A DNA stretch of 64,000 bases, taken from Streptomyces tuirus. Lineage in GTDB: Bacteria > Actinomycetota > Actinomycetes > Streptomycetales > Streptomycetaceae. The stretch is from positions 980,001 to 1,044,000 of the forward strand of contig NZ_AP023439.1 in assembly GCF_014701095.1 (NCBI RefSeq). Reading direction: 5' to 3'. Both the position numbers and the translations under genes were made by a program. The notes beneath the pieces were generated by a model. The model was given only the letters and a program-made list of their open reading frames with translations, had not been told where the DNA came from and did not search any database. This document shows positions 14,933 through 36,838 of the stretch, piece after piece; the first letter of the stretch is position 1, and each line of letters begins with the position of its first letter.

Positions 14933-15095
14933 GGGCCGTGCTCATCAGTTGTCGGTTATGGGCCGTGCTCATCGGTTGTCGGTTATGGGCCTTGCCCGTC
15001 GGTCCTCAACCAGGGGCCCTGCGCGTCGGTCCCGGTTGGCGGGGCCGTGTGCGCCGGTCGTCGGGTTCGGGCCGTTCGCGTCGGTCGTCGGTGTC
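14933..15095. repeat. Six tandem copies of a degenerate 27-bp repeat between glpK and cvnD
   Basis: Units start at 14933, 14960, 14987, 15014, 15042 and 15069, each beginning GGGCC; one extra base falls after the fourth unit. The first two differ at one position; later units diverge. The sixth ends on the cvnD stop codon. The array fills most of the space between two convergent genes. Confidence 0.85.
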
Positions 15096-15679
15096 AGCCG
15101 GTCACGGCCTCGCGGCGGTCGGCCGCGTACGCCATGGCGTGCTGGACGACGCCGATGAGTGCCTCCTTGACCGATTCGCGGTCCCGGGCGTCGCACATGA
15201 GGAGCGGCACGCCCTCATCGAGGTCGAGGGCCTGACGGACGTCCTCTGCCGGGTAACGGGGAGCGCCCTCGAAGCAGTTGACGCCGACGAGGAAGGGGAT
15301 CGAGCGCCGTTCGAAGTAGTCGACGGCGGCGAAGCAGTCCTCCAGGCGGCGGGTGTCGGCCAGCACGACGGCACCGAGCGCGCCCTCGGAGAGCTCGTCC
15401 CACATGAACCAGAACCGCTCCTGCCCGGGCGTGCCGAAGAGGTACAGCACGAGGTCCTCGCGGAGGGTGATGCGGCCGAAGTCCATGGCCACGGTCGTGG
15501 TGCTCTTGCCTTCCACACCGCTGGTGTCGTCGACCGGGCGCCCGGCCTCGGTGAGCAGCTCCTCGGTGCGCAGCGGCCTGATCTCGCTGACCGCGCCGAC
15601 GAGCGTGGTCTTGCCCACGCCGAAGCCGCCGGCCACCAGGATCTTGAGCGTGACGGGCTCGACCGGAGGCTTGCCGCGC

Positions 15680-15699
<20 letters not shown>
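15094..15699 (-). CDS. cvnD: Conservon GTPase CvnD
   Basis: A 201-residue Ras-like small GTPase of the MglA/CvnD type. P-loop [10 protein letters not shown], switch [11 protein letters not shown], and the degenerate G4 motif VGVNCFE typical of CvnD. Conservon products form a membrane-associated complex resembling eukaryotic G-protein signalling. The start at 15699 has GGAGAAGAG upstream and lies inside the 3' end of the oxoprolinase gene (20-base overlap), so the two are probably translated together. Normally cvnD follows cvnC directly; here the oxoprolinase gene separates them. Confidence 0.93.
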
Positions 15700-19378
<3,679 letters not shown>

Positions 19379-19402
19379 GTCAGTACCCCGCTTCCACGCT
19401 GC

Positions 19403-19798
19403 TCACAGCGCCCGGAGGCCGTTGATCACGTCGCGCAGAATACTCTCGTCCGGCAGCTCGGCGGGGGGTACGGGCCGGTTCACATGGACGAATTCTCCGT
19501 CCACGAGATCTCCGACGAGGACCCGTACCACTCCGATCGGCAGGTCGAGTTCCGCTGCGAGTTCGGCGACCGACTGCGGGACGTCACGGCACAGTTCGAC
19601 GATGTCCACGTGCTCCGGGGAGAGCATGTGGTCCGCTTCGGGATCGTCCGCGTGCGGCTCCGCGACCACGACCGCGATCAGGTCCAGGCGGTGCTGGCCC
19701 TGGCTGCTGGTGCGGCCGCGGGTCATGGCGTACGGGCGGACGACCGGTCCGGCGTCGTCGTCGAACCAGTGGCTTCTTCCCTGACCGTCAGCGCTCAT
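19403..19798 (-). CDS. cvnC: Conservon protein CvnC (DUF742)
   Basis: A 131-residue DUF742 protein. The HWFDDDAGPVVRPYAMTRGRT start is typical of the family. A winged-helix-like core follows (SVAELAAELDLPIGVVRVLVGDLVDGEFVHV) and the end is PDESILRDVINGLRAL. CvnC works with the roadblock protein and GTPase of the same conservon. Nine bases separate it from cvnB upstream; the oxoprolinase gene starts 24 bases after its stop. Confidence 0.92.
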   Translation of the reverse strand: MSADGQGRSHWFDDDAGPVVRPYAMTRGRTSSQGQHRLDLIAVVVAEPHADDPEADHMLSPEHVDIVELCRDVPQSVAELAAELDLPIGVVRVLVGDLVDGEFVHVNRPVPPAELPDESILRDVINGLRAL

Positions 19799-19807
19799 GC
19801 CATCCCA

Positions 19808-20242
19808 CTACCCGCCTGCGGGCAGATCGGTGCGCGGAGCGGCGGCCAGATGCACACCCACCCGCTTCACGAGCAGCGTCATCTCGTAGGCGACCTGGCC
19901 GACGTCCGAGTCGGCGTCGGAGAGGACGGCGAGGCAGCTGCCGTCACCGGCGGCCGTCACGAAGAGGAAGGCGTCGTCGAGCTCGACGACCGTCTGGCGG
20001 ACGTTGCCGGCCTCGAAGTGACGCCCCACGCCCTTGGCAAGGCTGTGGAACCCGGAGGCGACGGCGGCCAGGTGCTCGCTGTCCTCCCTGGTCAGGTCTT
20101 TGGACACGCCCGTCGGCAAACCGTCGCTGGAGAGCACGAGAGCCTTGCGGATGCTCGCGACTCGGTCCACCAGATCGTCGAGGAGCCAGTTCAGCTCCCC
20201 CTTGATCGTCGCGGTGTGGCCGGTCGCCTTCGGTGCGGTCAT
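19808..20242 (-). CDS. cvnB: Conservon roadblock/LC7 protein CvnB
   Basis: A 144-residue roadblock/LC7 fold (MglB-like). The helix LNWLLDDLVDRVASIRKALVL and the strands around AFLFVTAAGDGSCLAVL are typical. By family analogy it acts as GTPase-activating or scaffold partner of CvnD. Its ATG overlaps the cvnA stop as ATGA, showing translational coupling to the sensor. Confidence 0.93.
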   Translation of the reverse strand: MTAPKATGHTATIKGELNWLLDDLVDRVASIRKALVLSSDGLPTGVSKDLTREDSEHLAAVASGFHSLAKGVGRHFEAGNVRQTVVELDDAFLFVTAAGDGSCLAVLSDADSDVGQVAYEMTLLVKRVGVHLAAAPRTDLPAGG

Positions 20243-23200
20243 CGACCGTCCCCCTCTGTCGTTCCTTGTGGTGCTGTGCCGCTGTGGGCGGTATCGCCCG
20301 CGGCGTTCTCCTCACGGCCGCGCTGCCAGCCCCGCTGGAGCGATGCCATGCGGCTGCGTACTTCCTCGGCGTCGCGTTCGACGGGCTCGGCCCCGACGTC
20401 GGTACGCGGCTTCGAGCTCCGTTTCAGCTGCGGGGCCAGGTTCGCCTGCCGGACGCGCCGGGGCAGCGGGGCCGTGCCGGAAGCGGGCTGTGGTGCGGAG
20501 CCGGTTCCCTGGGGTGTGGCGCCGGAGCCCGTCCCGTGGCGCGAGGGTCCGGCGGCGGTCTCCGAGGAGCCGTGGTCGGGTGTCTCGGAGCCGCTCGCGG
20601 CGATCTCCGCGCGGCGGGTCCGCCTCGGGAGGACGGCTGGCTCCGATCGGTCGCCCGTGGCGCCGGGCGAGGCCGGGGATGCGGTGTGCTCCTCGTTGCG
20701 ACCGGCCGCGCCGATGCCGCGGCGGGTGGAGTCGGTCCCGCGACGGCGGGCCGGCAGCGGTGGCGGTGCGTCCGGCAGGGCGTCGCCCCGGACGCTGCCG
20801 GACGAGGAGTTCTCGGTGCGGCGCCGGGCCGGAAGGGCGGACGCCGGTTCGGGGCCCGGCCGGCCGGTGGCCCGGCTGCCCGTCGGATCCTCGCTCCGGC
20901 GGCGTGACGGGAGCGCGGAGGTGGGGCTCGACTCCGTGCGGGCCAGGGCCGTGGTGGTCTCCTCGTCCGTCTTGGCCCGCCGGGTGCGCTGCTCGGTGAC
21001 CGGGCGTCCGTGCGAGCTGACCAGCTTGGGGGTGTGGCGGCGGGGCAGCGGGACCGGCGGGCTCAGCTCGTCGTCGGCGTCGGACCCGTCCCCCGTGCCG
21101 CGGGCGTCGGCGGTCCGGCGCGGGTCGGTGCGGCGAGCTGCGGTCTCGTCCGTGGCGCGGATGAGGGAGTGGCGGGGCCGGAACAGGCCACCGTGTTCGC
21201 CGTCGTCGTCCTCGACGGCTCCGGGGAGGTCTGCGATGGCGTCCAGGCCGACGGGTGCCTCGAGCTCGACCGGTCCGTCCAGCAGGGTGGCGGGCAGGCC
21301 GGGGCGCTGCGCGGACGCCTGGGACAGCGCGGCGCGGCGGCTGTCCTGCGGTTCGCTGTCCGGGGCCAGCTGGGGGCGGTCGAGGCGGAACCCGATGCCG
21401 TTGGTGTCCGGGACGTCGTCGGTCAGCAGCGCGTCGGGGATGAAGACCACGGCGGTCGTGCCGCCGTACGGGGAGGGCTGCAGGGAGACCCGGACGTTCT
21501 GGCGCTGGGCGAGCCGGCTGACGACGAACAGGCCGAGCCGGTCGGTGTCGGAGAGCTCGAACTCCGGCGTCTCGGCGAGCCGGAGGTTGGCGTCCAGCAG
21601 CGCTTCGGCCGCCATGCCGAGGCCTCGGTCGTGAATCTCCAGGGTGAAGCCGTTGGCGACGCGTTCGCCCAGGACCTGGACGGCGGTGTGCGGCGGCGAG
21701 AAGACCGTGGCGTTCTCCAGCAGTTCGGCCACGAGGTGCGTGAGGTCGGCGACGGCCGGGCCGCTGATGGCGATTCGCGGCAGACGTCGGACCTCGATGC
21801 GCTCGTAGTCCTCGACCTCGGCGACGGCGGCACGCACGACGTCCATCAGCTGGACGGGCTTGCGCCACTGCCGGGAGGGCGCGGCGCCGGAGAGGATCAC
21901 CAGGCCCTCGGCGTGCCGGCGCATGCGGGTGGTCAGGTGATCGAGGCGGAACAGGTCGGCGAGTTCCTCGGTGTCCTCGGTCCGGCGCTCCATGGCGTCG
22001 AGGAGGGTGAGCTGCTTGTGCAGCAGAACCTGGCTGCGGCGGGCGAGGTTGACGAAGACCTCGGAGACGCCGGCGCGCAGTTCGGCCTGCTTGACGGCGG
22101 CTTCGACGGCGGCACGCTGCAGGGTGTTGAGGGCCTGGCCGACCTCGCCCATCTCGTTCTTGTCGTATTCCAGGCGCGGGACCTCGGTCTCGACGTCGAC
22201 CTGCTCGCCCGCGGAGAGGCGGCGCATCACACTGGGCAGCCGCACTCCGGACGCTTCGTGGGCCTCCAGGCGCAGTTGCCGCAGATCGCGGATGAGGGTG
22301 CGGCCGACGCGCACGGACAGGAAGAGGGAGACCAGGAGCGCGATCAGGCCGAGTGCACCGGCGATCACGGCCTTGGCGATGACACCGACGGCGACGGGGT
22401 GGACGCGGTCCTGGTAGCGGTCGTTGGCCTGGTCGTTGAGGGTGCCGAGCTCGTCGAGCACGTTCCCTGCGGCGCTGTCCCAGCTCTTGGCGGAGACGCC
22501 GCGGGGGCTTCCGGCCCCGGCCTCGGAGGAGACGGCGGCTTCCTCGGCCACGCGCAAGGGAGCGGAGGAGGCGTTCTTCCAGAAGGTCTGGTAGCGGTCG
22601 CGTTCCGCCACGGGCAGCAGCGGCAGGTTGACGTCGTACATCAGAGTGCGCTGGGCCACGAGGTCGGAGATGTCCCGCTCCTCGGAGTGCGAGATCCTGC
22701 CGACGATCAGGGCGGAGCCGAGGAGGGCGTCCTCACGGGAGAGCAGCTCGCGGGCGCGGGCGAGGTTGACCAGCGCGCGGTACTGCTTGTCCAGCTCGAT
22801 GTTGTCGACCACGTGCAGGTTGGCGAGGAGCACGTAGCTGGGGTCGACCAGCCGGTTGTAGAGGTCGAGGGCCTGGGTGCGGTTGACGGTGCCGTCCTCG
22901 ACGCTGCGGCGCAGCGAGTCGATGCCGTCGAAGGCGTCCAGGACGGCGGTCAGTCGCTCGTCGGTGTCCGCGCCCATCGCATCGCGCACGTCTGGGTTCC
23001 GGGCGTTCTCGCGGATGCCGGCGACGGCCTTGTCGGTGGCGTTCCGGCTGCGCCGGAGGGCGGCGAGACCGTCGGACGCGCGGGGGTCGGCGAGGTGGAC
23101 GAGGGTCTGGCGGCGTTCCTCCTGGAGGACGCGGACGGTGTCCTCGATGGGGTAGCCGATCTTCTCCACCACGGACGACACGTTGAAGAGGTCGCCCGCC

Positions 23201-23310
23201 TCACGTCCCGTGAGCACCGTGGCGAAGGCCCAGATCGCGGTCAGGGACACCAGCGGCACGAGAAGCAGCGCCACGATCTTCCGGCGGATGGACTTCCCGC
23301 GAAAGCGCAT
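20239..23310 (-). CDS. cvnA: Conservon sensor histidine-kinase-like protein CvnA
   Basis: A 1023-residue membrane sensor. TM1 is at residues ~12-33, followed by an extracellular nitrate/nitrite-sensing type helical domain, TM2 at ~306-328, and a HAMP-like linker. The dimer region contains LDHLTTRMRRHAEGLVIL, and the ATPase domain has LVAELLENATVFSP (N box) and HDRGLGM (G box). Residues ~640-1023 are a Pro/Arg/Ser-rich disordered tail. The ATG at 23310 follows GGGGGAGG by two bases; a longer reading adds a stretch before the basic cap of TM1. Confidence 0.93.
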   Translation of the reverse strand: MRFRGKSIRRKIVALLLVPLVSLTAIWAFATVLTGREAGDLFNVSSVVEKIGYPIEDTVRVLQEERRQTLVHLADPRASDGLAALRRSRNATDKAVAGIRENARNPDVRDAMGADTDERLTAVLDAFDGIDSLRRSVEDGTVNRTQALDLYNRLVDPSYVLLANLHVVDNIELDKQYRALVNLARARELLSREDALLGSALIVGRISHSEERDISDLVAQRTLMYDVNLPLLPVAERDRYQTFWKNASSAPLRVAEEAAVSSEAGAGSPRGVSAKSWDSAAGNVLDELGTLNDQANDRYQDRVHPVAVGVIAKAVIAGALGLIALLVSLFLSVRVGRTLIRDLRQLRLEAHEASGVRLPSVMRRLSAGEQVDVETEVPRLEYDKNEMGEVGQALNTLQRAAVEAAVKQAELRAGVSEVFVNLARRSQVLLHKQLTLLDAMERRTEDTEELADLFRLDHLTTRMRRHAEGLVILSGAAPSRQWRKPVQLMDVVRAAVAEVEDYERIEVRRLPRIAISGPAVADLTHLVAELLENATVFSPPHTAVQVLGERVANGFTLEIHDRGLGMAAEALLDANLRLAETPEFELSDTDRLGLFVVSRLAQRQNVRVSLQPSPYGGTTAVVFIPDALLTDDVPDTNGIGFRLDRPQLAPDSEPQDSRRAALSQASAQRPGLPATLLDGPVELEAPVGLDAIADLPGAVEDDDGEHGGLFRPRHSLIRATDETAARRTDPRRTADARGTGDGSDADDELSPPVPLPRRHTPKLVSSHGRPVTEQRTRRAKTDEETTTALARTESSPTSALPSRRRSEDPTGSRATGRPGPEPASALPARRRTENSSSGSVRGDALPDAPPPLPARRRGTDSTRRGIGAAGRNEEHTASPASPGATGDRSEPAVLPRRTRRAEIAASGSETPDHGSSETAAGPSRHGTGSGATPQGTGSAPQPASGTAPLPRRVRQANLAPQLKRSSKPRTDVGAEPVERDAEEVRSRMASLQRGWQRGREENAAGDTAHSGTAPQGTTEGDGR

Positions 23311-23728
23311 GGCCTCCCCCAGCTCGGGCCCCCGGCTACCGGGGGTACACATGTGCGTCAACAAACGGCGCGAGCCTACTACCGACGCACAGGGAACTCG
23401 AAGACTGGTCCGGAGCCTGGAGTTCCGCGCCAGCCACGCGGCATGGCGAGTTGTCCGGGCATTGCGGGAGTTGTCTCCCGAAACCGGTGGTCGCGGCGCG
23501 GACCAACCCCTCGACTCCGTCAGGGTGGTTGGCCGAAATTTTTCGGTCTCCGGGAATCTTCATGAGGAGTTGTTCGTCCTTCTCTATGGGAAACGGGGGC
23601 GGAATCGGCCACAGGAGCCGCGTCCCGCACCTGGGCGGCGTAAAACAGCGCAAGCCGGGCAGCCACTGGGGAGCACGGGTCTTCGGACGCGAGCGATTGG
23701 TCTGCTGGCGGTGGGGAGTGACACGGTG
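23311..23728. other. Divergent spacer upstream of the conservon, with a 14-bp palindrome
   Basis: It holds no convincing gene and must contain the conservon promoter. A perfect inverted repeat CCGAAA-TT-TTTCGG lies at 23533-23546, unusually A/T-rich for this genome and about 230 bases before cvnA. A related site (CCGAAATTTCGG) occurs at 42348-42359. Confidence 0.45.
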
Positions 23729-26529: not shown

Positions 26530-29500
26530 TCACACCGGGCGCTTGTACATCCTGGTCGCCGTGATCTCGCTGTGGACCGCCTCCCCCGTCCGGGCCTGCT
26601 GCGGCAGGCCCGGGCGGAGGTGCTCCTCGACGCTGATGTACTTGAGGCCGGCCCTGAGGTCGGCGTCGTTGCGCATGCGGATGACCAGGGGGAACTCGGC
26701 CAGCGCGGTGGTGTCGAACAGGCCCGTGGTGTACAGGAGCTGCACGCCCAGGGCGTCCGACACCGCCCGCTGGAGTTCCAGCAGGTACGTGGCGTTGGCG
26801 CGGCCGATGGGGTTGTCGAGGAACAGGGTGCCGGCGTGCCGGTGCTTGTCGCGGCCCCGGTCGTTGGACCGCAGCGCGGCCATCGTGCAGTAGAGGGCGA
26901 TGGCCGCGGTGAGGAGCTGGCCGCCGGAGAAGACGTCGCCCATCTGCCCGACGGGGACGCGCTCGGCGCGCAGCACGGCGTCGGGCTTGAGGATCTCGAC
27001 GGCGACACCCTTGGGCTCCAGCGCCGCGGCGACACCCCTGAGCAGCAGGGACATGCCGTCGCGCCGCAGGTCGGAGTTCTTCTTGACGGCGGCGCGGGTC
27101 GCCTCGTCGATGACCTCGCCGAGCCGCTCGGTGAGGGTGGCCTGGTCGGGCTCCTCGAAGCGGATGCGGAGGAACTCCTGCCCGGACCACTCCCCGAGGC
27201 CCTCCGGCAGCCGGGAGAGCCGCTGCGCGGAGCGCAGGGTGGCCAGGGCCGACTCGACCAGGCCGCGCAGGCGGTCCACGATCGAGTCGCGGTTGCGCTC
27301 CAGCTGCTCCAGTTCGTCGGTGAGGACGCGGAGCCGGGGTGCGAAGGCGTCGGCCCACTTCTGGGCGTGGTCGGGCAGCGCGGAGGCGGGCAGTTCGCGG
27401 ATCTGCTGGCGGGCGGGGGTGCGGACCTGCTCGTAGCGGGTGGAGTTGGCGTGCCGGACGAGGATGTCGCTGGCCTCACGGACGGCGGCCTCGGCGGCGG
27501 ACAGGTCGGCGGCGCAGCCGCGCAGGGAGCGCCGGGCCTCCGCGGCCGACTGCCGGGCCTCCTCGGGGCTGCCGGGGTAGGGCTCGGGCTCCTCGTGCTC
27601 CTCGTCCGTGGCGTGTTCGCGCAGCAGGTCCCGGAGCATGGCGGCGATCTCGTCGAAGCCGCTCGCCGCGTCCTCGGCGGCGCGGTGGGCGTCGAGGAGT
27701 TCGGCGTGCGCCGCGCGTGCCTGGTTCAGCGCCTCGGTGTGGGAGGCGAGTTCGCCCGTGGCGGTGCGCAGCAGGTTCTGCGCGTGCTCGGCGTCGCGCG
27801 GCTGAAGCTCCTCGGGCAGGTCGGTGTGCGTCTCGCCGTCGTCGGCGGGGGCGAGGCGTTCGGCCTCGCCGCGCAGCCGCCCCAGCTGCTCGCTCGCGGT
27901 CGACATCCGGGTCTCCAGGAGCTGCACCAGCTCCTCGGCGCGGGCGGCGGCGGCCTGGCGGCTGGGGCCGTCGGAGCCGTCGGGGGATTCGAGGAGCTGC
28001 TCCGCGCGGGTGCGGACCTTGTTGCTCAGCCGGTCCAGCTCCGCGCGGGCGGCGCTCTCGTCGCTCTCGGCGCGGGCCTGCTCGGCGCGCAGGTCGGCGC
28101 CCACACCGACCTTCTCGTACACCTGGGACGCGGCCCGGTAGGCCTCGCGCAGGGCCGGCAGGGAGGCCTTGGGCGCCTGGTCGTCGTCCGCGGGCACGTC
28201 GTCGGGGGCGCCCGCGATCTCGGAACGCTCGGCGCGCAGCGCGCGGGCGGTACGGCGGGTGTCGTCGGCGGCGCGCTGGGCGGCCCGCCGGTCCTCGTCG
28301 GCGGCCCGGGCCCGCTCCAGGCAGGACTGGGCGCTCGCCTCGGACTCGGCCGCCTCGTCGGCCAGTTCGCGCAGTTTGACCTGCCAGCCGGCCCGCTCGC
28401 GCAGCCGGAAGGCGAGCCCGGCGAGGGCGTCGGCGGAGCGACGGGCCTTCTGGGCTGCCTCCTGCCGCTCGTCCCGGACGCGGGCGGCCTCGGCGGCGAC
28501 CTCGTCGGCCTCGGCCCGCACGGTCCGGGCCTCGGCCAGTTCGGCCTCGGACTCCTCGGCGAACGCGCGGCTGTCGTGGGCCGCCCGGGCCAGTTCGGTC
28601 AGCCGGCCGGCGGGGCAGCCGGTGCGCCAGGAGGCGAGCCGGGCGGCCAGTTCGCGGTCCTTGTCGAGCCGGGCGGCGAGGGTGCGGATCTCCTCGTCCC
28701 GCTCGGTGGCCCGGGCGCGCAGCGCCTGCCGCTCCTCGTCGGCGGCGTGCTCGTCGTGCATGGCCGGGTTCGGCGGCACGAGGAACACGTCGCCGCTACC
28801 GGAGTCCGGGGCGGGCGTCGGGGCGAGCAGGGCGGCGGCGGTGCCGACCGCGACGGCCGAACGGGGCAGCAGCGCCGCCTCGCCCAGCGCCTCCCGGGCG
28901 CGTGCGTGGGAGTCGGGGTCGGTGATGATCACGCCGTCGACGAGTTCGGGCCGGGCGGCCAGTACACGTGCGTGGTCGGCGGGGTCGACGGCCTGGGCGA
29001 GATAGCGCCAGCCGGGCAGCGCGGGGATGCCGTGCTCGCCGAGGAACTCGACCGTGGCCAGCACGTCCGGGCCGGGCGGCAGCAGCCCGCCGTCGCCGAG
29101 CGCGCCGAGGATGCGGGAGTCGTCGGCGGCGGCCGTGCGCAGGTCGAACAGCTGCCGCTCGGCCGAGGAGACGGCGTCGTCGAGCAGGTCGCGCAGGTCG
29201 TCGGCGAAGCGGTCGAGTTCCTCCGGGGTGAGGCCCTGTTCGGCAGCGGCCGGCTGCGCGACGGGCGCGCCGTCCGTGCCGTGGCGGGGTTGCGGAATGC
29301 CCGGGCGGGTCTCCGGGGTCAGGCTGAGCAGTTCCGCGAGCCGCTCCTCCCCCGCCAGTGCCTCCGCGGTGCGGCGCTCGGCCTCGTAGGAACGCTCGGC
29401 CGCCGTGGCCGCGTCGGCGGCGCGGGCCGCGGTGAGTTCGGCGCGGGATTCGGCGGATGCGGCTTCGCGGGCGTGCTCGGCGGCCCGGCGGGACGCCTCG

Positions 29501-31158
29501 CGGGCGGCGTCCCAGGCCGCGACGGCGGTCTTCTCGGCGTCGCTGGCGGCCAGGGCCGCGCGGGCGGGGTCGGCGTCGGGCGCGGTGTCGTCGAGCCAGC
29601 CGGCCCGGACCGCCTCGGCGGTCTCCTGCTCGACTTCGGCGAGGCGCTGCTTGAGGTGACCGATCTCGCTGCGGGCGCGCTGGGCCTGGGTGGCGGCCGC
29701 GGTGGAGTCGCGGTAGGCCGCGTCGCTGACCTCCTGGAGGGCGGCGGAGCGCTCCTCCTCCTCATTGGCGTGGCTCTCGGCCTTCTCCGCTGCGGCGTGC
29801 AGGGCCCGTACGAGGTCGACGGCGGCCTTGGAGCGGGCGGCCAGGGCAGGCGCGGCGTCCCGCTCGGCCTCCTGGATGGCGGCGGACACGCGGGTGACGC
29901 GGTCGGAGGCGGCGCGGTGGCGCAGCACGGCCTCGGCGGCCTGCCACGCCGAGTACAGCGTGCGGGCGTCGGCGAGCTCGCGCTTCTGCGCGGCGGCGGA
30001 CTTCTCGGCTCCGGCGAGCGCGAGCGAGGCGTGCCGGTAGGCGAGTTCGGCGGAGATCAGCGCACTGCGCTCGCGGGCCGCCCCGGCGTGCGTGACGGCG
30101 TACGCGGCGGCGGTGACCCGCTGGGCCAGGTCTGCGGCCCGGACGCGCTCCCGCACACCGCGCGCGGACAGCCTGCGGGCCAGGGTCCGGGTGCGGCGCT
30201 CGGCTCCGGCGTGGACGTCCCGCGCGCGGGAGCGGGCCTCGGCGGCCTCGACGATCCGCCCGAGGAGGTCGACGGACCCGGCGGTGAAGTCGCGTTCGGC
30301 GATCAGCTCGGCGCGCCGGCCCAGCTTGTTGCCGAAGCCGCTGACCAGGTCGGCGAGTCCGTCGGTGTCGCGGGTGTCGGTGACGGCGCGCAGCAGCAGG
30401 TCGGTGAAGTCGGCGTCCTTCTTGACCGCGAAGAGACCGGCGGCCTCACCTTCGTCGGCGTTCATCTCGCGCTGGTAGCGGAAGAGCTCGGGGTCGAGGC
30501 CGAGGTCGCCGAGGTGCTCGATCCAGCGGTCGTGGGTCTCCTCCCAGTGCACCTCCAGGTGCGGGTAGTTCCTGCCCGCCTCGGTGAGGGCGTCGCGGAA
30601 GCCCTTCATGGTGCGGCGCCGCCCGCGCGCACTGGACTGGCCCTCGACCGGGGCCCGTACGGCGGTGGACTCCGCGACGGGCAGACCGTCCAGGTTCAGT
30701 CCGGGCCCGGGCCGGAAGGAGTACCAGGCCTCGGCGAACTTCCGCGGGTCGTTGGAGACCTGCCGCCCGCGCCACTCGCTGACCTTGCCGACGACGACGC
30801 ACTCGCCGGTCAGCACGTGCTGCCACTCCAGCGCCACGTGGCCGCAGTCGTCGGCGAGGAGGAACTTGCGCAGCACACCGGAGCTGGCGCCGCCGAGGGT
30901 GTTGCGGTGGCCCGGCAGCATCACGGAGAAGATGAGCTTGAGCAGCACCGACTTGCCGCCGCCGTTCTCCAGGAAGAGCACCCCGGCGGGTGCGGGCCGG
31001 CGCGGCGGGCCGACCGGCTCGTCCTCGAAGAACTCCGCCTGCGTGGGCGCGGGGTCGGGCACGATCTCGCCGACCCCCCGCAGGTCAAGCACGGTGTCGG
31101 CGTAGCGCGCACCGGCGGGCCCGATCGAGTAGAGGCGGACCCGGGACAGCTCGTACAT
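26530..31158 (-). CDS. SMC/MukB-like coiled-coil ATPase (JetC/MksB-type), third gene of a three-gene operon
   Basis: A 1542-residue SMC-class protein. Head N-terminal half: Walker A LENGGGKS (residues 63-70). Two very long Ala/Glu/Arg-rich coiled-coil arms flank a globular hinge-like middle. Head C-terminal half: ABC signature FSGGQ (ending at 1414) and Walker B LFLDNP (Asp ~1448). The residue after the Walker B Asp is Asn, not the usual catalytic Glu. It should dimerise and move or organise DNA with the two upstream gene products, as in MukBEF, MksBEF or Wadjet. The ATG lies 35 bases after the stop of the middle gene. The next gene converges, so no downstream partner exists. Confidence 0.85.
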   Translation of the reverse strand: MYELSRVRLYSIGPAGARYADTVLDLRGVGEIVPDPAPTQAEFFEDEPVGPPRRPAPAGVLFLENGGGKSVLLKLIFSVMLPGHRNTLGGASSGVLRKFLLADDCGHVALEWQHVLTGECVVVGKVSEWRGRQVSNDPRKFAEAWYSFRPGPGLNLDGLPVAESTAVRAPVEGQSSARGRRRTMKGFRDALTEAGRNYPHLEVHWEETHDRWIEHLGDLGLDPELFRYQREMNADEGEAAGLFAVKKDADFTDLLLRAVTDTRDTDGLADLVSGFGNKLGRRAELIAERDFTAGSVDLLGRIVEAAEARSRARDVHAGAERRTRTLARRLSARGVRERVRAADLAQRVTAAAYAVTHAGAARERSALISAELAYRHASLALAGAEKSAAAQKRELADARTLYSAWQAAEAVLRHRAASDRVTRVSAAIQEAERDAAPALAARSKAAVDLVRALHAAAEKAESHANEEEERSAALQEVSDAAYRDSTAAATQAQRARSEIGHLKQRLAEVEQETAEAVRAGWLDDTAPDADPARAALAASDAEKTAVAAWDAAREASRRAAEHAREAASAESRAELTAARAADAATAAERSYEAERRTAEALAGEERLAELLSLTPETRPGIPQPRHGTDGAPVAQPAAAEQGLTPEELDRFADDLRDLLDDAVSSAERQLFDLRTAAADDSRILGALGDGGLLPPGPDVLATVEFLGEHGIPALPGWRYLAQAVDPADHARVLAARPELVDGVIITDPDSHARAREALGEAALLPRSAVAVGTAAALLAPTPAPDSGSGDVFLVPPNPAMHDEHAADEERQALRARATERDEEIRTLAARLDKDRELAARLASWRTGCPAGRLTELARAAHDSRAFAEESEAELAEARTVRAEADEVAAEAARVRDERQEAAQKARRSADALAGLAFRLRERAGWQVKLRELADEAAESEASAQSCLERARAADEDRRAAQRAADDTRRTARALRAERSEIAGAPDDVPADDDQAPKASLPALREAYRAASQVYEKVGVGADLRAEQARAESDESAARAELDRLSNKVRTRAEQLLESPDGSDGPSRQAAAARAEELVQLLETRMSTASEQLGRLRGEAERLAPADDGETHTDLPEELQPRDAEHAQNLLRTATGELASHTEALNQARAAHAELLDAHRAAEDAASGFDEIAAMLRDLLREHATDEEHEEPEPYPGSPEEARQSAAEARRSLRGCAADLSAAEAAVREASDILVRHANSTRYEQVRTPARQQIRELPASALPDHAQKWADAFAPRLRVLTDELEQLERNRDSIVDRLRGLVESALATLRSAQRLSRLPEGLGEWSGQEFLRIRFEEPDQATLTERLGEVIDEATRAAVKKNSDLRRDGMSLLLRGVAAALEPKGVAVEILKPDAVLRAERVPVGQMGDVFSGGQLLTAAIALYCTMAALRSNDRGRDKHRHAGTLFLDNPIGRANATYLLELQRAVSDALGVQLLYTTGLFDTTALAEFPLVIRMRNDADLRAGLKYISVEEHLRPGLPQQARTGEAVHSEITATRMYKRPV

Positions 31159-31193
31159 GGCGGACTCTCGTAAGTCTTCGTGAGATGGGGAGT

Positions 31194-32075
31194 TCAGGAG
31201 GAGTGGAACGGCAGCCCGGCGTCGGCGACCAGTTCCAGGTCGTCGCTCTCCTCGGCGGGCAGCAGCGTCGGTGTGCCGTCGGTGACCGGGACGACGCCCA
31301 GTTCCAGCAGTTCGGCCATGGCGGCGCTGCCGGCCATGTCGCGGACCTGGAGCTGGTAGCGGGCGGTGGTGCGGTAGGTGCCGCCGTGGTCGTCGCCGGT
31401 GCGCTGCAGGAATCCGGAGTCGGTGAGGAAGGCGACGGCCTTGGCGACGATGCCGGTGGTCGAACCGGCCAGCCGGCGGGCGTCCTTGGTGGCGCCGGTC
31501 GCGCTGCGCCGCACCCAGATCCGCCAGGCGGCCTCCAGGCCGGGCGCGTCGGTGGCCGGGTCGGTGTTCTCGCCCTGCTCGTCGGCGCGCTCCTCCAGGC
31601 GGCGGCAGGCCTGGCGCACGAAGGCGTCGACGCCGTTGACCGAGACCCGGCCGATGTAGCCGTCGTCGGCGAGGTCCTCGGGGCGCGGGAACGCCATGGC
31701 GGCGACGGCGAGATGGGCGAGCCCGTGCAGGAAACGGTCGCCTCCGTCGGCGGCCGTACGACGCGCGTAGTCGCCCATGCGGACGGCGAACACCGAGTCC
31801 TCGGCGGCGGTCACGGCCATGCCCGCGCGGGGGGAGACCTCCAGGACGATCAGGCCGAGCCCGGTCGCCACGGCGTCCGCGAGCCGCGCGAAGGGCGGGT
31901 CCTCGCGGTAGCGCCGCAGCAGGTCCGCGTACTCCTGGTCGCGGGCGGGCTGCAGCTTGGGCTGCAGGCCGAACGACACGAGCCGGGCCGCGTCGGCGGC
32001 GTCGGCGGGAGTGACGGCGGCGGTGGCCGCCGGGGCCGGGCTCTCCGCGTCGCCCCACTCGACGTGCTCGCTCAC
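31194..32075 (-). CDS. Winged-helix accessory protein of the SMC-like operon (JetB/MksE-like, inferred)
   Basis: A 293-residue soluble protein. An N-terminal helical region (LQPARDQEYADLLRRYREDP) is followed by LIVLEVSPRAGMAVTAAEDS. A C-terminal winged helix (TTGIVAKAVAFLTDSGFLQR with a YRTTARYQLQVRDM wing) resembles the KITE/MukE subunits that bind SMC-kleisin. The role is inferred from gene order, size and fold-like features, not from a diagnostic motif. The GTG start follows AAGGAG. It lies 109 bases after the first gene and 35 before the ATPase gene. Confidence 0.7.
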   Translation of the reverse strand: MSEHVEWGDAESPAPAATAAVTPADAADAARLVSFGLQPKLQPARDQEYADLLRRYREDPPFARLADAVATGLGLIVLEVSPRAGMAVTAAEDSVFAVRMGDYARRTAADGGDRFLHGLAHLAVAAMAFPRPEDLADDGYIGRVSVNGVDAFVRQACRRLEERADEQGENTDPATDAPGLEAAWRIWVRRSATGATKDARRLAGSTTGIVAKAVAFLTDSGFLQRTGDDHGGTYRTTARYQLQVRDMAGSAAMAELLELGVVPVTDGTPTLLPAEESDDLELVADAGLPFHSS

Positions 32076-32120
32076 GACGGGAACTCCTTGACCTTGTAGA
32101 CGGGATTGCGGGCCACGCCC

Positions 32121-32144
32121 TCAGGGGCGCGGGGAACTGCGCGA
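32121..32144. repeat. Dispersed Streptomyces intergenic repeat, copy 1
   Basis: The core AGGGGCGCGGGGAACTGCGC lies in the 109-bp gap between the first two genes of the SMC-like operon. The same element with one change recurs at 54295-54318. I recall near-identical sequences scattered between genes in many Streptomyces genomes; their function is unknown. Confidence 0.7.
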
Positions 32145-32184
32145 CGGGCCACGACGGCGCCGCGGCCGGCCACCGGGGGCGGGA

Positions 32185-33711
32185 TCACGCGGCCTCCGTC
32201 CTGTCGGCCGCCATCCCCGCCGCGTCCAGCAGTGCGGTGCCGACGATGAGGTCGGCCCCGCCGAACTCCGGGTCGTCGAGTTCGGTCCCGTCGTCGACGG
32301 CGAACAGCAGCTTCTGCTCGCCCTGGCGATAGGCCGTGCCGACCGGCGGGCTGGCGGCGTGCACCGCGAGCAGGGCGACCAGATACGGCAGCTCTCGGTC
32401 CTGCCGCCGGGCCTGCGCCAGCAGTCCGGACAGCCGGCGCGGCGCGTCCGCCGGCAGGTCGAGCAGCTCCTGCGCGGCCGCCATCTGCTCCTCGCTGAAC
32501 CGGCTGTCGTCCGGCGTGGCGATCAGGTCGGGCTCGGGCATCTCCGCACCCAGGTGCTCCCGCTCCACCGGCGGCGTCAGCAGTATGTCGACCAGGTCGC
32601 CGACCCGGACGGACACCGGTGTGCGCAGCCCGGTGCCGCGGCTGAAGAAGGCGTCGGTGACGCGGACAGCCTGCTCCAGCGGCAGCGGGAGCACGGGCGA
32701 GACGAGATGTCCGTAGAGGTCTGTGCCCGACGTCGTCATCGGGGTGGCGAAGGCCTGCCGGTCCTGCTCGGCGCGGAACAGCGGTCCGGCCTCCAGCAGG
32801 CGGGACTGCAACTGTGTGTGCCGGCGGATGCAGTCCTTGACGATGTCGACGAGCTCGGCGGCGCGGCGCTTGTGCTCGGGGTCCTCGGACTCGTCCCGTG
32901 CCTTGCGGATGTTGGTGAGGATCGCGTTCTCGTGGCGGTAGCGGTCGGCGACGTGCTCCAGCGCCTCGGCGATCATGTCGGGCACGCTTGCGAGCCAGTC
33001 CACCGCGCGCACGTTGCGCCGGGTGGCGTCCAGGGCGCGGCGCAGGGTCTCCGAGTACTGCACGGTCCGGTAGCGGGCCTGTTCGGCCGCGAGCTGGGCG
33101 TCGGCGAGCCGGCCGCGGCTGATCAGCACGTCCAGCTTGACCTCGGCGGCGATCTGCGCGCTGGTGACGTCCGTGTCGAGGGCGCCGACGAGGACGTTGA
33201 CCGCCTCGTCCGTCGTACGGAGGTAGACCGTGCCGCCGGGGCCGGGGACCTCTTCGATCAGCTTGAAGTCGTAGTCGCGGCGCACATAGGTGCCGTCCGC
33301 CCCGAACGTGCCGTACACGGCGCGGAAGCCGCGGTCCACGCTGCCGACGTTGATCAGGTTCTCCAGGACCCAGCGGGCCACCCGCTCGTGCTCGGCGGCG
33401 GGCCGCCGCGGGGCCTGGGCGGCGATGCGCGGGATGAGCCGGGCGACGATCTGGTCGTGGTCGGCGCCCGTGTCGAAGTCCATGTTGAGGGTGACCAGGT
33501 CGATCGCCGCGAGGGCGACCTCCGCCATGCCGTACACCGAGTACGCGCCGGCCAGGTTGGCCTTGCGCGCGTCCAGGTCGTGCAACGGCGCGGTGCAGGC
33601 GAGCGCACGCAGGCGCCGCGCCAGGCCCTCGTCGGCGGCCGGCCCCGGGGCGGGGCGCGGCCCCGCGCTGAGCTGGGGCGGAACGCTGTCCGTCGATGCA
33701 GGCGAAGTCAC
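32185..33711 (-). CDS. Kleisin-like first gene of the SMC-like operon (JetA/MksF-like, inferred)
   Basis: About 508 residues. The N-terminal third looks like a winged helix (HERVARWVLENLINVGS, then GTVYLRTTDEAVNVLVGAL). A helical middle (AQLAAEQARYRTVQYSETL through RHENAILTNIRKARDES) resembles the four-helix neck of MukF/MksF. The C-terminal part is mixed alpha/beta. It leads the ABC-ordered operon. Start: GTG 33711, with TAGTCT ending seven bases upstream, suggests a leaderless message; a TTG at 33741 is the alternative. The kleisin role is inferred from order and architecture. Confidence 0.68.
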   Translation of the reverse strand: MTSPASTDSVPPQLSAGPRPAPGPAADEGLARRLRALACTAPLHDLDARKANLAGAYSVYGMAEVALAAIDLVTLNMDFDTGADHDQIVARLIPRIAAQAPRRPAAEHERVARWVLENLINVGSVDRGFRAVYGTFGADGTYVRRDYDFKLIEEVPGPGGTVYLRTTDEAVNVLVGALDTDVTSAQIAAEVKLDVLISRGRLADAQLAAEQARYRTVQYSETLRRALDATRRNVRAVDWLASVPDMIAEALEHVADRYRHENAILTNIRKARDESEDPEHKRRAAELVDIVKDCIRRHTQLQSRLLEAGPLFRAEQDRQAFATPMTTSGTDLYGHLVSPVLPLPLEQAVRVTDAFFSRGTGLRTPVSVRVGDLVDILLTPPVEREHLGAEMPEPDLIATPDDSRFSEEQMAAAQELLDLPADAPRRLSGLLAQARRQDRELPYLVALLAVHAASPPVGTAYRQGEQKLLFAVDDGTELDDPEFGGADLIVGTALLDAAGMAADRTEAA

Positions 33712-33724
33712 GGTGCACAGACTA
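33712..33724 (-). promoter_or_regulatory. Possible -10 element for a leaderless SMC-operon transcript
   Basis: On the minus strand TAGTCT (33724-33719) is followed by seven bases and then the GTG start. A weak -35-like TTGGGT lies 19 bases further upstream. This spacing would start transcription at or next to the initiation codon, as is common in Streptomyces. Confidence 0.4.
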
Positions 33725-33813
33725 GGTCCTGGGTCTGACAACCACCCAAACGACGCGGTACGCCCCGTGGGCCGCCGGCCTCAGCCGTCCCCACGGACTC
33801 CGGAGCCGCCCCC

Positions 33814-34706: not shown

Positions 34707-36008
34707 ATGAGCACGACCCCTCCACCGCAGGCCCGGATCGACGGCCCACGCCCCGCGACCACCGAACGCACCTCGGACGACGGGGCGTTCGGCTGGCTGC
34801 GTGCCCTGGGCCCGCGCGGCCGCCGCGCCTTCGCCGGCGCCTTCGGCGGCTATGCCCTGGACTCGTACGACTACTTCACGCTGCCGCTGAGCATGGTCGC
34901 GCTGTCCGCCTACTTCGGCCTGAACAGCGGCCAGACCGGTCTCTTGACCACGGTCACGCTGGTGGTCTCCGCGGTCGGCGGCGCCCTGGCGGGCGTGCTC
35001 GCGGACCGCGTCGGCCGGGTGAAGGCGCTGATGCTCACGGTGATCACGTACGCGGTGTTCACCGTCGCCTGCGGTTTCGCGCCCAACTACGAGACGCTGC
35101 TGGTCTTCCGTGCGCTTCAGGGGCTCGGTTTCGGCGGCGAGTGGGCCGTCGGCGCGATCCTGGTCGCCGAGTACGCGAGCGCCAAGAACCGAGGGCGCAC
35201 GCTCGGCGCGATCCAGAGCTCCTGGGCCGTGGGCTGGGGCCTCGCCGTGATCGTCTACACCCTGGTCTTCTCGGTGGCCGGCGACGACCTGGCCTGGCGC
35301 ATCATGTTCTGGACCGGGGCGCTGCCCGCGCTGCTCGTCATCTGGTTGCGGCGCAGTGTGCACGACGCCCCCGAGGCGGCCGCGGCACGTGAACGGAGTG
35401 CGGAGAGGGGCTCGTTCACGGCGATCTTCAAGCCCGGCCTGCTGCGGATCACCCTCTTCGCGGGACTGCTCTCCACCGGTGTCCAGGGCGGCTACTACAC
35501 ACTGGCCACCTGGGTGCCGACGTATCTGAAGTCCGAGCGGGACCTGTCGGTCGTCGGCACCGGCGGCTATCTGACGTTCCTCATCTCGGGCGCCTTCATC
35601 GGCTACCTGACCGGCGGCTACCTCACCGACAAGCTGGGCCGGCGGCGCAACATCTGGCTCTTCGCGCTGCTCTCCGCGCTCTGCATCCTGGCGTACGCGA
35701 ACATCCCGAGCGGCGCGAACACCCTGCTCCTGGTGCTCGGTTTCCCGCTCGGGTTCTGCATGTCGGCGATCTTCAGCGGCTTCGGGTCCTACCTGAGCGA
35801 GCTGTACCCGACGGCGGTGCGCGGGACGGGGCAGGGATTCACGTACAACGCCGGGCGCGCGGTGGGTGCCGTGTTCCCGACGACGGTCGGATTCCTGGCC
35901 GACAGCTGGGGCGTCGGCGGCGCGCTGGTCTTCGGCGCGATCGGCTACGGCATCGCGGCCCTGGCCCTGCTCGGGCTGCCGGAGACGCGTGGGAAGGAAC
36001 TCGCGTGA
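34707..36008 (+). CDS. MFS transporter
   Basis: A 433-residue, 12-helix major-facilitator protein of the metabolite:H+ symporter type. The A-loop motif [10 protein letters not shown] after TM2 and [21 protein letters not shown] in the TM4-5 region are typical of the aromatic acid/sialic acid/sugar-acid branch. The ATG follows GAGG. It is the first gene of an operon with DUF1445 (four-base overlap) and a pxp remnant, under the divergent GntR gene. Its cargo is plausibly 5-oxoproline, D-glutamate or another oxo-acid, by context only. Confidence 0.9.
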
Positions 36009-36838
36009 ACGGCACGGGTACCGGCACCGAGGACCGTCCGGTGGTCCTTGTCGACGAGGACGCGCACGCGTGGAGCCCCGAAACGGCCCGCTCCCGCTTC
36101 CGGGAGGGCCTGACGGGCCCCACGGCCGGGGTCGCGGCGGGCCACACGCAGGTCAACCTGATCTCGGTGCCCGCCGACTGGGCCTACGACATGCTGCTGT
36201 TCTGCCAGCGCAACCCCAAGCCCTGCCCGGTCCTCGACGTCACGGACGCCGGCTCCTGGACGACCGTGCTGGCCGAGGGCGCCGACCTGCGCACCGACCT
36301 GCCGCGCTACCGGGTCTGGCGGGACGGCGAACTGGTGGACGAGCCGACGGACGTGCGTGCCTACTGGCGGGACGACCTGGTGTCGTTCCTCATCGGGTGC
36401 AGCTTCACCTTCGAGTGGGCGCTGGGCGAGGCGGGTGTTCCGATCCGCCACGTCGAGCAGGGCCGCAACGTCCCGATGTACGTGACGAGTCGGCAGTGCC
36501 GTCCCGCGGGGCGGCTGCACGGGCCGCTGGTGGTGTCCATGCGGCCGGTGCCGCCCGGGCAACTGGCGGCGGCGATCCGGGAGAGCAGCCTCATGCCGGC
36601 GGTGCACGGCAGCCCCGTGCACTGCGGCGATCCCTCGGGCCTCGGCATCGACGACCTCGGCCGTCCCGACTTCGGGGACCCGGTGGACGCCGAGCCGGAC
36701 GACATCCCGGTGTTCTGGGCCTGCGGAGTGACCCCGCAGGCGGCCGTGATGGCCTCGCGTCCGCCGTTCGCCCTCACGCACGCGCCGGGGCAGATGTTCC
36801 TCACCGACGCACACGACGAGCAGTACCGCGTGGCCTGA
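36005..36838 (+). CDS. DUF1445 (YcsI-type) putative hydro-lyase / D-glutamate cyclase family
   Basis: 277 residues, full family length. Conserved blocks: [54 protein letters not shown] and [10 protein letters not shown]. The family includes YcsI, encoded near 5-oxoprolinase (pxp) genes in Bacillus, and a domain of mammalian D-glutamate cyclase, which interconverts D-glutamate and 5-oxo-D-proline. Its ATG overlaps the MFS stop as ATGA. The pxp remnant 15 bases downstream supports a 5-oxoproline-related role. Confidence 0.88.

What the first reader, a model, noticed from the sequence alone, without database searches (positions are those of the whole stretch)
26530..33711. Three-gene SMC-like operon in Wadjet JetABC/MksFEB order but without a JetD/MksG nuclease
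A kleisin-like 508-residue protein, a winged-helix 293-residue protein and a 1542-residue SMC/MukB-like ATPase are transcribed together in that order. It is the gene order of plasmid-restricting Wadjet systems. The TOPRIM nuclease that should follow is absent: the next gene is a converging permease. This could be a chromosome-organising MksBEF-type condensin, a Wadjet relic, or a system recruiting a nuclease encoded elsewhere. A role in Streptomyces sporulation or plasmid exclusion is possible.
Basis: partly seen in the sequence, partly recalled or inferred. Interest (0 to 1): 0.75.

Follow-up and report, generated by a model that had tools for sequence, protein, structure and literature searches.

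The report
Nuclease-free Wadjet-type SMC complex in Streptomyces
Almost all Streptomyces and their family relatives carry an intact, inherited copy of a DNA-loop-making machine related to a plasmid-destroying defence system but without its DNA-cutting part, which suggests an old defence system was converted into a housekeeping chromosome tool.

Summary
The three genes are real and intact: a kleisin (JetA, 508 aa), a KITE protein (JetB, 293 aa) and an SMC ATPase (JetC, 1542 aa), in that order on the minus strand. JetA and JetC match Wadjet type III profiles. The nuclease JetD is missing, and no JetD was found in the 7.56-Mb genome by three JetD profiles. This is not decay. Core-level JetA is in 245 of 249 Streptomycetaceae genomes (16 of 17 genera), gene order held in 82 of 83 loci, three ATPase motifs were identical in 32 of 32 JetC, and 0 of 103 loci had a type III JetD nearby. 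JetD-bearing Wadjet III systems occur as sporadic second copies, and the core JetA is one clade nested among them. Best reading: one Wadjet III lost JetD before the family diversified and became an MksBEF-like second condensin. Loop extrusion and a chromosomal role are inferred, not shown. Two traits fit a dedicated function: a JetB C-terminal tail with GLPFH (150 of 155 core JetB, 0 of 11 others) and a conserved element just before jetA. The literature searches found no description of this set.

The parts
32185..33711 (-). JetA/MksF-like kleisin, 508 aa
   Evidence: PADLOC JetA3 PDLC00567 E=6.6e-187. AlphaFold model: best seven Foldseek hits in PDB are all chains of MukF, MukEF or MukBEF entries, best E 3.1e-3; the first eight VIA-align rows are too, Z 13.0-13.7
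31194..32075 (-). JetB/MksE-like KITE (winged-helix) subunit, 293 aa, with a lineage-specific C-terminal tail ending GLPFHSS
   Evidence: No profile hit. Best eight Foldseek hits are all chains of MukEF, MukBEF or JetABC entries, best E 5.0e-3. Aligns with JetB of JetD-bearing systems. GLPFH in 150 of 155 distinct core JetB
26530..31158 (-). JetC/MksB-like SMC ATPase, 1542 aa; Walker A NGGGKS, signature FSGGQ, Walker B FLDNPIGRA (motif names recalled)
   Evidence: PADLOC JetC3 PDLC00588 E=0, 1416 bits; motifs
33712..33752 (-). conserved element CGTTTGGG...GTTGTCAG...CCTAGTCT, seven bases before the jetA GTG; promoter-like and consistent with a leaderless mRNA
   Evidence: 25 of 33 orthologous upstream regions with at most 4 substitutions, 0 of 990 shuffles; function inferred. 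The sigma-70 consensus scan found nothing here

Best explanation
It is a JetD-free, MksBEF-like SMC complex that arose from a Wadjet type III system by loss of its nuclease before the Streptomycetaceae diversified, and has since been inherited as a chromosomal housekeeping gene set. Shown here: intact subunits of kleisin, KITE and SMC type, invariant ATPase motifs, family-wide conservation at a recurrent chromosomal position, a place in the JetA tree among JetD-bearing Wadjet III, and absence of JetD. Inferred: the kleisin dimer joins two JetB-bound JetC motors that bind ATP, entrap DNA and extrude loops; without JetD, completed extrusion does not lead to cutting, so the complex works on the cell's own linear chromosome as a second condensin beside SMC-ScpAB; and the conserved JetB tail docks a host partner or loader.
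For: Profiles and folds. JetA in 60 of 61 Streptomyces genomes and 246 of 249 Streptomycetaceae, one of the 246 (G462) only a distant match. JetB in 75 of 76 and the JetC head in 75 of 76 genomes, G462's distant match being one of each. G050, without JetA or JetB, has the JetC head; the JetC miss, G002, runs off a contig end. Outside the family: 2 of 15 genomes of the order (E 2e-100 and 2e-49, loci not examined) and 5 genomes of the phylum. Order A-B-C in 82 of 83 loci. Three ATPase motifs identical in 32 of 32 core JetC from 13 genera. dN/dS 0.055-0.107 for JetA in the five closest pairs. Type III JetD profile: 0 of 103 core loci, strong hits in 10 of 12 non-core loci. Own genome negative for PF09983, JetD3 alignment and PF09664. 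Core JetA one clade (98/96) among JetD-bearing rows. Of 48 long contigs, 44 carry it transcribed towards the nearer end, at a median 0.167 of the contig length from it. Precedent: PMC10586767 says P. [quoted passage not shown]
Against: No functional data. Conservation shows selection, not the function. Walker B has D-N where SMC ATPases usually have D-E (recalled), so the hydrolysis rate is uncertain, although several JetD-bearing type III JetC share D-N. The JetA tree is rooted at the midpoint only and has very long outgroup branches, which the tool warns may join falsely. Foldseek E-values are weak and the models of middling confidence (pLDDT 73.7 and 78.6); CorA chains score VIA-align Z 12.5 on JetA's helical part, within 1 of MukF. 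dN/dS rises to 0.33 (JetA), 0.47 (JetB) and 0.51 (JetC) in the most distant pairs, where dS stays near 0.5. G012 has the operon broken and scattered and G464 looks frameshifted, so loss may be tolerated.
Confidence: 0.62

Rival explanations
1. It is still an anti-plasmid system, either using an unrelated nuclease encoded elsewhere or restricting or silencing circular DNA without cutting.
For: Same protein families as Wadjet III. Streptomycetes are rich in plasmids and conjugative elements (recalled). An unknown nuclease cannot be excluded by JetD profiles.
Against: No JetD found in the own genome; 32 of 61 genomes have none over cut-off (union; four of the 32 have weak matches at E 0.02-0.06). 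Family-wide inheritance is unlike the sporadic JetD-bearing copies (5 of 61). In the 5 kb beyond JetC of 103 loci the commonest codirectional gene is the NIT-type kinase (62 loci), and none of the ten commonest gene clusters was recognised as a nuclease by eye (only some were checked by profile).
Confidence: 0.2
2. A chromosomal SMC complex whose main job is not bulk organisation but a specific task: repair or recombination, replication-fork handling, telomere or terminal-protein biology of linear replicons, or hyphal conjugation.
For: Nearly limited to a family with linear chromosomes (linearity recalled). In Borrelia, MksB promotes long-range contacts on a linear chromosome and reduces telomere contacts (PMC10406323, passages).
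Against: No genetic linkage or partner found here supports any one task.
Confidence: 0.14
3. Decaying Wadjet relic.
For: JetD is missing; single damaged loci exist (G012, G464).
Against: Open frames, invariant motifs and low dN/dS in close pairs.
Confidence: 0.02
4. Complete Wadjet with JetD lost by assembly error or overlooked.
For: None found.
Against: 0 of 103 orthologous loci from many assemblies have a type III JetD hit.
Confidence: 0.01

Closest known systems
Wadjet type III (JetABCD, PADLOC JetA3/JetC3/JetD3)
   Same: JetA and JetC match type III models at 620 and 1416 bits; same A-B-C order; several share the LDNP Walker B; core JetA clade lies among JetD-bearing rows
   Different: No JetD; near-universal in one family instead of sporadic; JetB tail GLPFH; conserved upstream element; gaps between genes where the JetD-bearing operons mostly overlap
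MksBEF of Pseudomonas aeruginosa (condensin without nuclease)
   Same: Kleisin, KITE and SMC without nuclease; likely origin by loss of JetD (PMC10586767, passages and section 7)
   Different: Here the relatives are type III; the source type of P. aeruginosa MksBEF was not tested here nor stated in what I read
MukBEF
   Same: Closest solved folds for JetA and, with JetABC, for JetB
   Different: No PDB sequence match for JetA or JetC. MukBEF replaced SMC-ScpAB (PMC10586767), whereas Streptomyces have Smc, ScpA and ScpB (PMC4255298, passages)
MksBEFG-type systems of Corynebacterium and Mycobacterium
   Same: Actinobacterial Muk-like SMC
   Different: Those carry the MksG nuclease, and the C. 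glutamicum one acts against plasmids (PMC10123090, passages); the JetD_C profile rings in C. glutamicum

Membership tests
Wadjet type III | JetA3-type kleisin | tested here: met
   (620 bits). In one search four of eight JetD-bearing JetA score 604-662 bits and the other four 141-408
Wadjet type III | JetC3-type SMC ATPase with conserved motifs | tested here: met
Wadjet type III | JetB3 KITE subunit | tested here: inconclusive
   No PADLOC JetB3 hit, but 5 of 7 JetB of JetD-bearing systems also had none and two only weak hits; fold matches MukE/JetB entries
Wadjet type III | JetD nuclease in the operon or genome | tested here: not met
   own genome; loci
Wadjet type III | plasmid restriction | not testable with these tools
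   needs an experiment
MksBEF-type condensin | kleisin + KITE + Muk-like SMC without nuclease subunit | tested here: met
MksBEF-type condensin | organises the cell's own chromosome | not testable with these tools
   needs Hi-C or cytology of mutants
MksBEF-type condensin | vertical chromosomal inheritance | tested here: met
   one clade. No species tree was compared
SMC-ScpAB | SMC with ScpA and ScpB | not tested
   JetC matched only JetC3 models in PADLOC and nothing in Pfam or NCBIfam at E 1; no direct comparison was made

The most novel reading that the evidence does not exclude
Streptomycetaceae possess an unrecognised second condensin, domesticated from a Wadjet III plasmid-killing machine by a single ancestral loss of its nuclease, and retargeted to the linear chromosome by a new JetB C-terminal docking motif (GLPFH) that took over from JetD as partner-binding site.
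Probability: 0.35. Interest if true: 0.82.

Novelty: new variant of a known kind. Interest (0 to 1): 0.62.

Why it matters
It has been suggested that MukBEF and MksBEF descend from defence systems (PMC10586767, section 7, offered there as speculation). A family where the JetD-free complex is nearly fixed, while JetD-bearing relatives come and go in some of the same genomes, makes that idea directly testable. It would also add a second, unstudied SMC complex to a genus whose chromosome folding has been studied through SMC and HupS (PMC8410768, passages). Defence-system counts that scored JetA3/JetC3 without requiring JetD would label a housekeeping complex as immunity in nearly every Streptomyces.

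Tried and rejected
Pfam and NCBIfam gave no usable hit for the three proteins. PDB sequence searches gave nothing relevant for JetA or JetC. The Walker B D-N change looked like a dead ATPase, but several JetD-bearing type III JetC have it too. G007 and G022 first looked like further JetD-less second copies, but the type III JetD profile found their JetD, so PF09983 alone under-calls type III JetD. I guessed from memory that the S. coelicolor genes might be SCO1631-1633; papers show these are HelY, TatC and TatA, so no SCO number is given. A first regular expression for the upstream element was badly written and found 3 of 33; the corrected one found 25 of 33, misses L130, L137, L237, L238, L240, L241, L245 and L248. 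Its pattern was drawn from these same related sequences and the shuffles keep base composition only, so it is descriptive. VIA-align for JetB mixes MukE/JetB rows with ordinary winged-helix regulators at similar Z, so the KITE call rests on Foldseek rank and coverage. Only close pairs are quoted for dN/dS; the closest JetB pair (L031, 0.156) has few changes and JetB reaches 0.189 at L101. The locus position was first counted on 40 contigs (36 of 40), leaving out eight long contigs whose length was also known; the recount with them is 44 of 48. Rows left out on purpose: L243 (frameshifted), L128/L250/L261 (G012) and L252 (same genome as L137) from the 32 motif rows; the tree used 22 chosen core loci plus the window and 11 others. 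The own genome was not searched for SMC-ScpAB.
Full report
WHAT IS THERE. The window is G000:C1:980001-1044000 of a 7.56-Mb one-contig genome. Its nearest named relatives by JetA are Streptomyces (best 80 loci kept of at least 538). On the minus strand lie JetA 33711-32185, JetB 32075-31194 and JetC 31158-26530, with gaps of 109 and 35 nt. The converging gene downstream is an amino-acid permease; upstream is a GntR/FCD regulator, then divergent MFS and D-glutamate cyclase genes.

IDENTITY. PADLOC profiles place JetA (JetA3, E=6.6e-187) and JetC (JetC3, 1416 bits) in Wadjet type III; JetB has no profile hit. Of seven JetB from JetD-bearing systems five had none and two only weak hits, so this is a gap in the library. 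AlphaFold models built from 25-row (JetA) and 26-row (JetB) alignments were compared with PDB. JetA's best seven Foldseek hits are chains of MukF, MukEF or MukBEF entries, best E 3.1e-3, with VIA-align Z up to 13.7, though CorA chains reach 12.5 on the helical part. JetB's best eight hits are chains of MukEF, MukBEF or JetABC entries, best E 5.0e-3. The E-values are modest; rank and coverage agree.

NO NUCLEASE. Own genome: no match to JetD_C PF09983 at E 1, to an alignment of eight type III JetD at E 0.1 (34 of 79 candidates scored) or to DUF2399 PF09664 at E 0.1. Of 61 Streptomyces genomes, 9 have PF09983, 5 a strong type III JetD and 24 PF09664 over cut-off. The union is 29, so 32 of 61 have none over cut-off; all 32 carry core JetA. 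Four of the 32 have weak matches at E 0.02-0.06 (G013 and G019, G030 and G053). Controls: of eleven non-core JetA loci read, eight had an ORF in the JetD position and all eight are JetD3. The five strong type III JetD hits among the 61 genomes fall in exactly the five with a second JetABC copy, in that operon. Scanning all held loci with the JetD profile at E 0.01, 0 of 103 core loci with at least 1 kb beyond JetC hit, while 10 of 12 non-core loci gave strong hits. Eight of those ten are in the profile itself; L203 and L249 are independent. The two misses are L199, where JetC is broken, and L200, cut by a contig end. The 103 loci hold 102 different JetC ends.

CORE GENE SET, NOT DEFENCE ISLAND. 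JetA was found in 60 of 61 Streptomyces genomes, in 246 of 249 Streptomycetaceae (240 of 241 good genomes, 17 of 17 genera), in 232 of 245 of the order, where 2 of 15 genomes outside the family match, and in 17 of 396 across the phylum, 12 of them of the window's genus. One family match, G462, is only a distant JetD-bearing copy, so core-level presence is 245 of 249 and 16 of 17 genera. The three without a match are G517, G580 (71% complete) and G653. JetB is in 75 of 76 and the JetC head in 75 of 76 genomes, G462's distant copy being one of each; G050 lacks JetA and JetB but has the JetC head, and G002's JetC runs off a contig end. Order A-B-C on one strand holds in 82 of 83 loci of at least 17 kb, L128 (G012) being the exception. 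Most of these loci are close relatives, since keeps the best. Neighbours vary: GntR 73, permease 30, NIT-type kinase 51 of 83. An unbiased clustering of genes in the 5 kb beyond JetC gave the same kinase (62 of 103 loci), a converging small membrane-protein-like ORF (51) and the permease (30) as commonest. Of 48 contigs of at least 6.8 Mb whose length was shown, the locus lies at a median 0.167 of contig length from the nearer end and is transcribed towards it in 44. JetA dN/dS is 0.055-0.107 in the five closest pairs and rises to 0.33 in the most distant. Walker A, signature and Walker B are identical in 32 of 32 core JetC, from the window's genus and 12 others.

ORIGIN. In a 34-row JetA tree, rooted at the midpoint, the 23 core sequences are one clade (98/96), in an unresolved fork with the JetD-bearing pairs L122/L123 and L124/L202 and with other JetD-bearing rows further out; two rows, L199 and L200, have no JetD in view. 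The tool warns of long branches. The simplest history is one Wadjet III that lost JetD before the family's radiation. JetD-bearing copies have lower third-position GC (0.66-0.87 over their genes in L122-L126, L201, L202 and L204, against 0.94 for the window's JetA ORF and 0.89 for its JetC ORF) and mostly overlapping genes, as expected of recent arrivals; they come from other genomes, so this is a rough comparison.

NEW TRAITS. Core JetB ends in a low-confidence stretch and GLPFH: 150 of 155 distinct core sequences, 133 with LPFH in the last eight residues, and 0 of 11 others. Exceptions read LPFF (two), LPYH, LPFR and LPLH. In type I Wadjet, JetD contacts an N-terminal motif of JetB (PMC10586767, section 7), so JetB is a plausible site for a replaced partner; this is inference. 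A conserved element lies directly before jetA in 25 of 33 loci.

MECHANISM. Inferred from family knowledge: ATP-driven DNA entrapment and loop extrusion by a kleisin-linked dimer of JetBC motors. In the proposed model for Wadjet, complete extrusion of a small circle triggers JetD (PMC10586767, passages); without JetD the motor cannot cut and could act on the chromosome. Precedents are P. aeruginosa MksBEF (PMC10586767) and Borrelia MksB on a linear chromosome, there without MksE and MksF (PMC10406323, passages). What is shown is the anatomy, inheritance and selection; the motor activity and the target are inferred.

LITERATURE. Searches showed no paper describing a JetD-less Wadjet set in Streptomyces. 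Only open-licence PMC papers were searched; I saw the listings (capped at 20 of 92 and 20 of 1,183) and passages of selected papers. Passages of the actinobacterial defence survey PMC10482375 report Wadjet in 42% of Actinobacteria and towards chromosome ends in Streptomyces; the word JetD does not occur in it. The passages found in PMC8410768, PMC13121528 and PMC12511625 mention no second SMC complex of Streptomyces. PMC10586767 was seen as passages and section 7; PMC10123090 and PMC4255298 as passages.

AGAINST. G012 carries the three genes at three places with breaks inside jetA and jetC, and G464 looks frameshifted in jetB and jetC; either assembly faults or tolerated loss. There is no expression or phenotype evidence. 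On re-checking, the counts of genera, contigs and GC range were corrected and the profile-membership of controls was added; none changes the odds.

Noticed in passing
L128, L250, L261 (G012): The operon is broken into three distant places in a one-contig genome, with matches ending inside jetA (residue 464) and starting inside jetC (residue 626). Real shattering or scrambled assembly is unresolved.
   Followed up: partly
L243 (G464): jetB and jetC match in several reading frames, suggesting frameshifts or a low-quality assembly.
   Followed up: no
L203:6750-8960 (G444): A 736-aa ORF begins like JetA and covers a JetC C-terminal match, an apparent internal deletion of a Wadjet III operon; the locus still has a JetD profile hit.
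   Followed up: no
window 15094-23364: Conservon-like set (NIT-domain kinase, Roadblock, DUF742, GTPase; the name conservon is recalled) has a 5-oxoprolinase/hydantoinase ORF lying between DUF742 and the GTPase; a D-glutamate cyclase lies at 36005-36838.
   Followed up: no
window 33712-33752: Conserved promoter-like element with CCTAGTCT seven bases before the jetA start, suggesting leaderless transcription by an unidentified sigma factor or regulator.
   Followed up: partly
JetC Walker B in the window and in L122-L125, L201, L202: These type III JetC read D-N where SMC ATPases usually have D-E (recalled); how they hydrolyse ATP is unclear.
   Followed up: partly
L122, L126: Pfam JetD_C alone misses type III JetD in G007 and G022, so surveys based on it would under-count type III systems.
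   Followed up: yes
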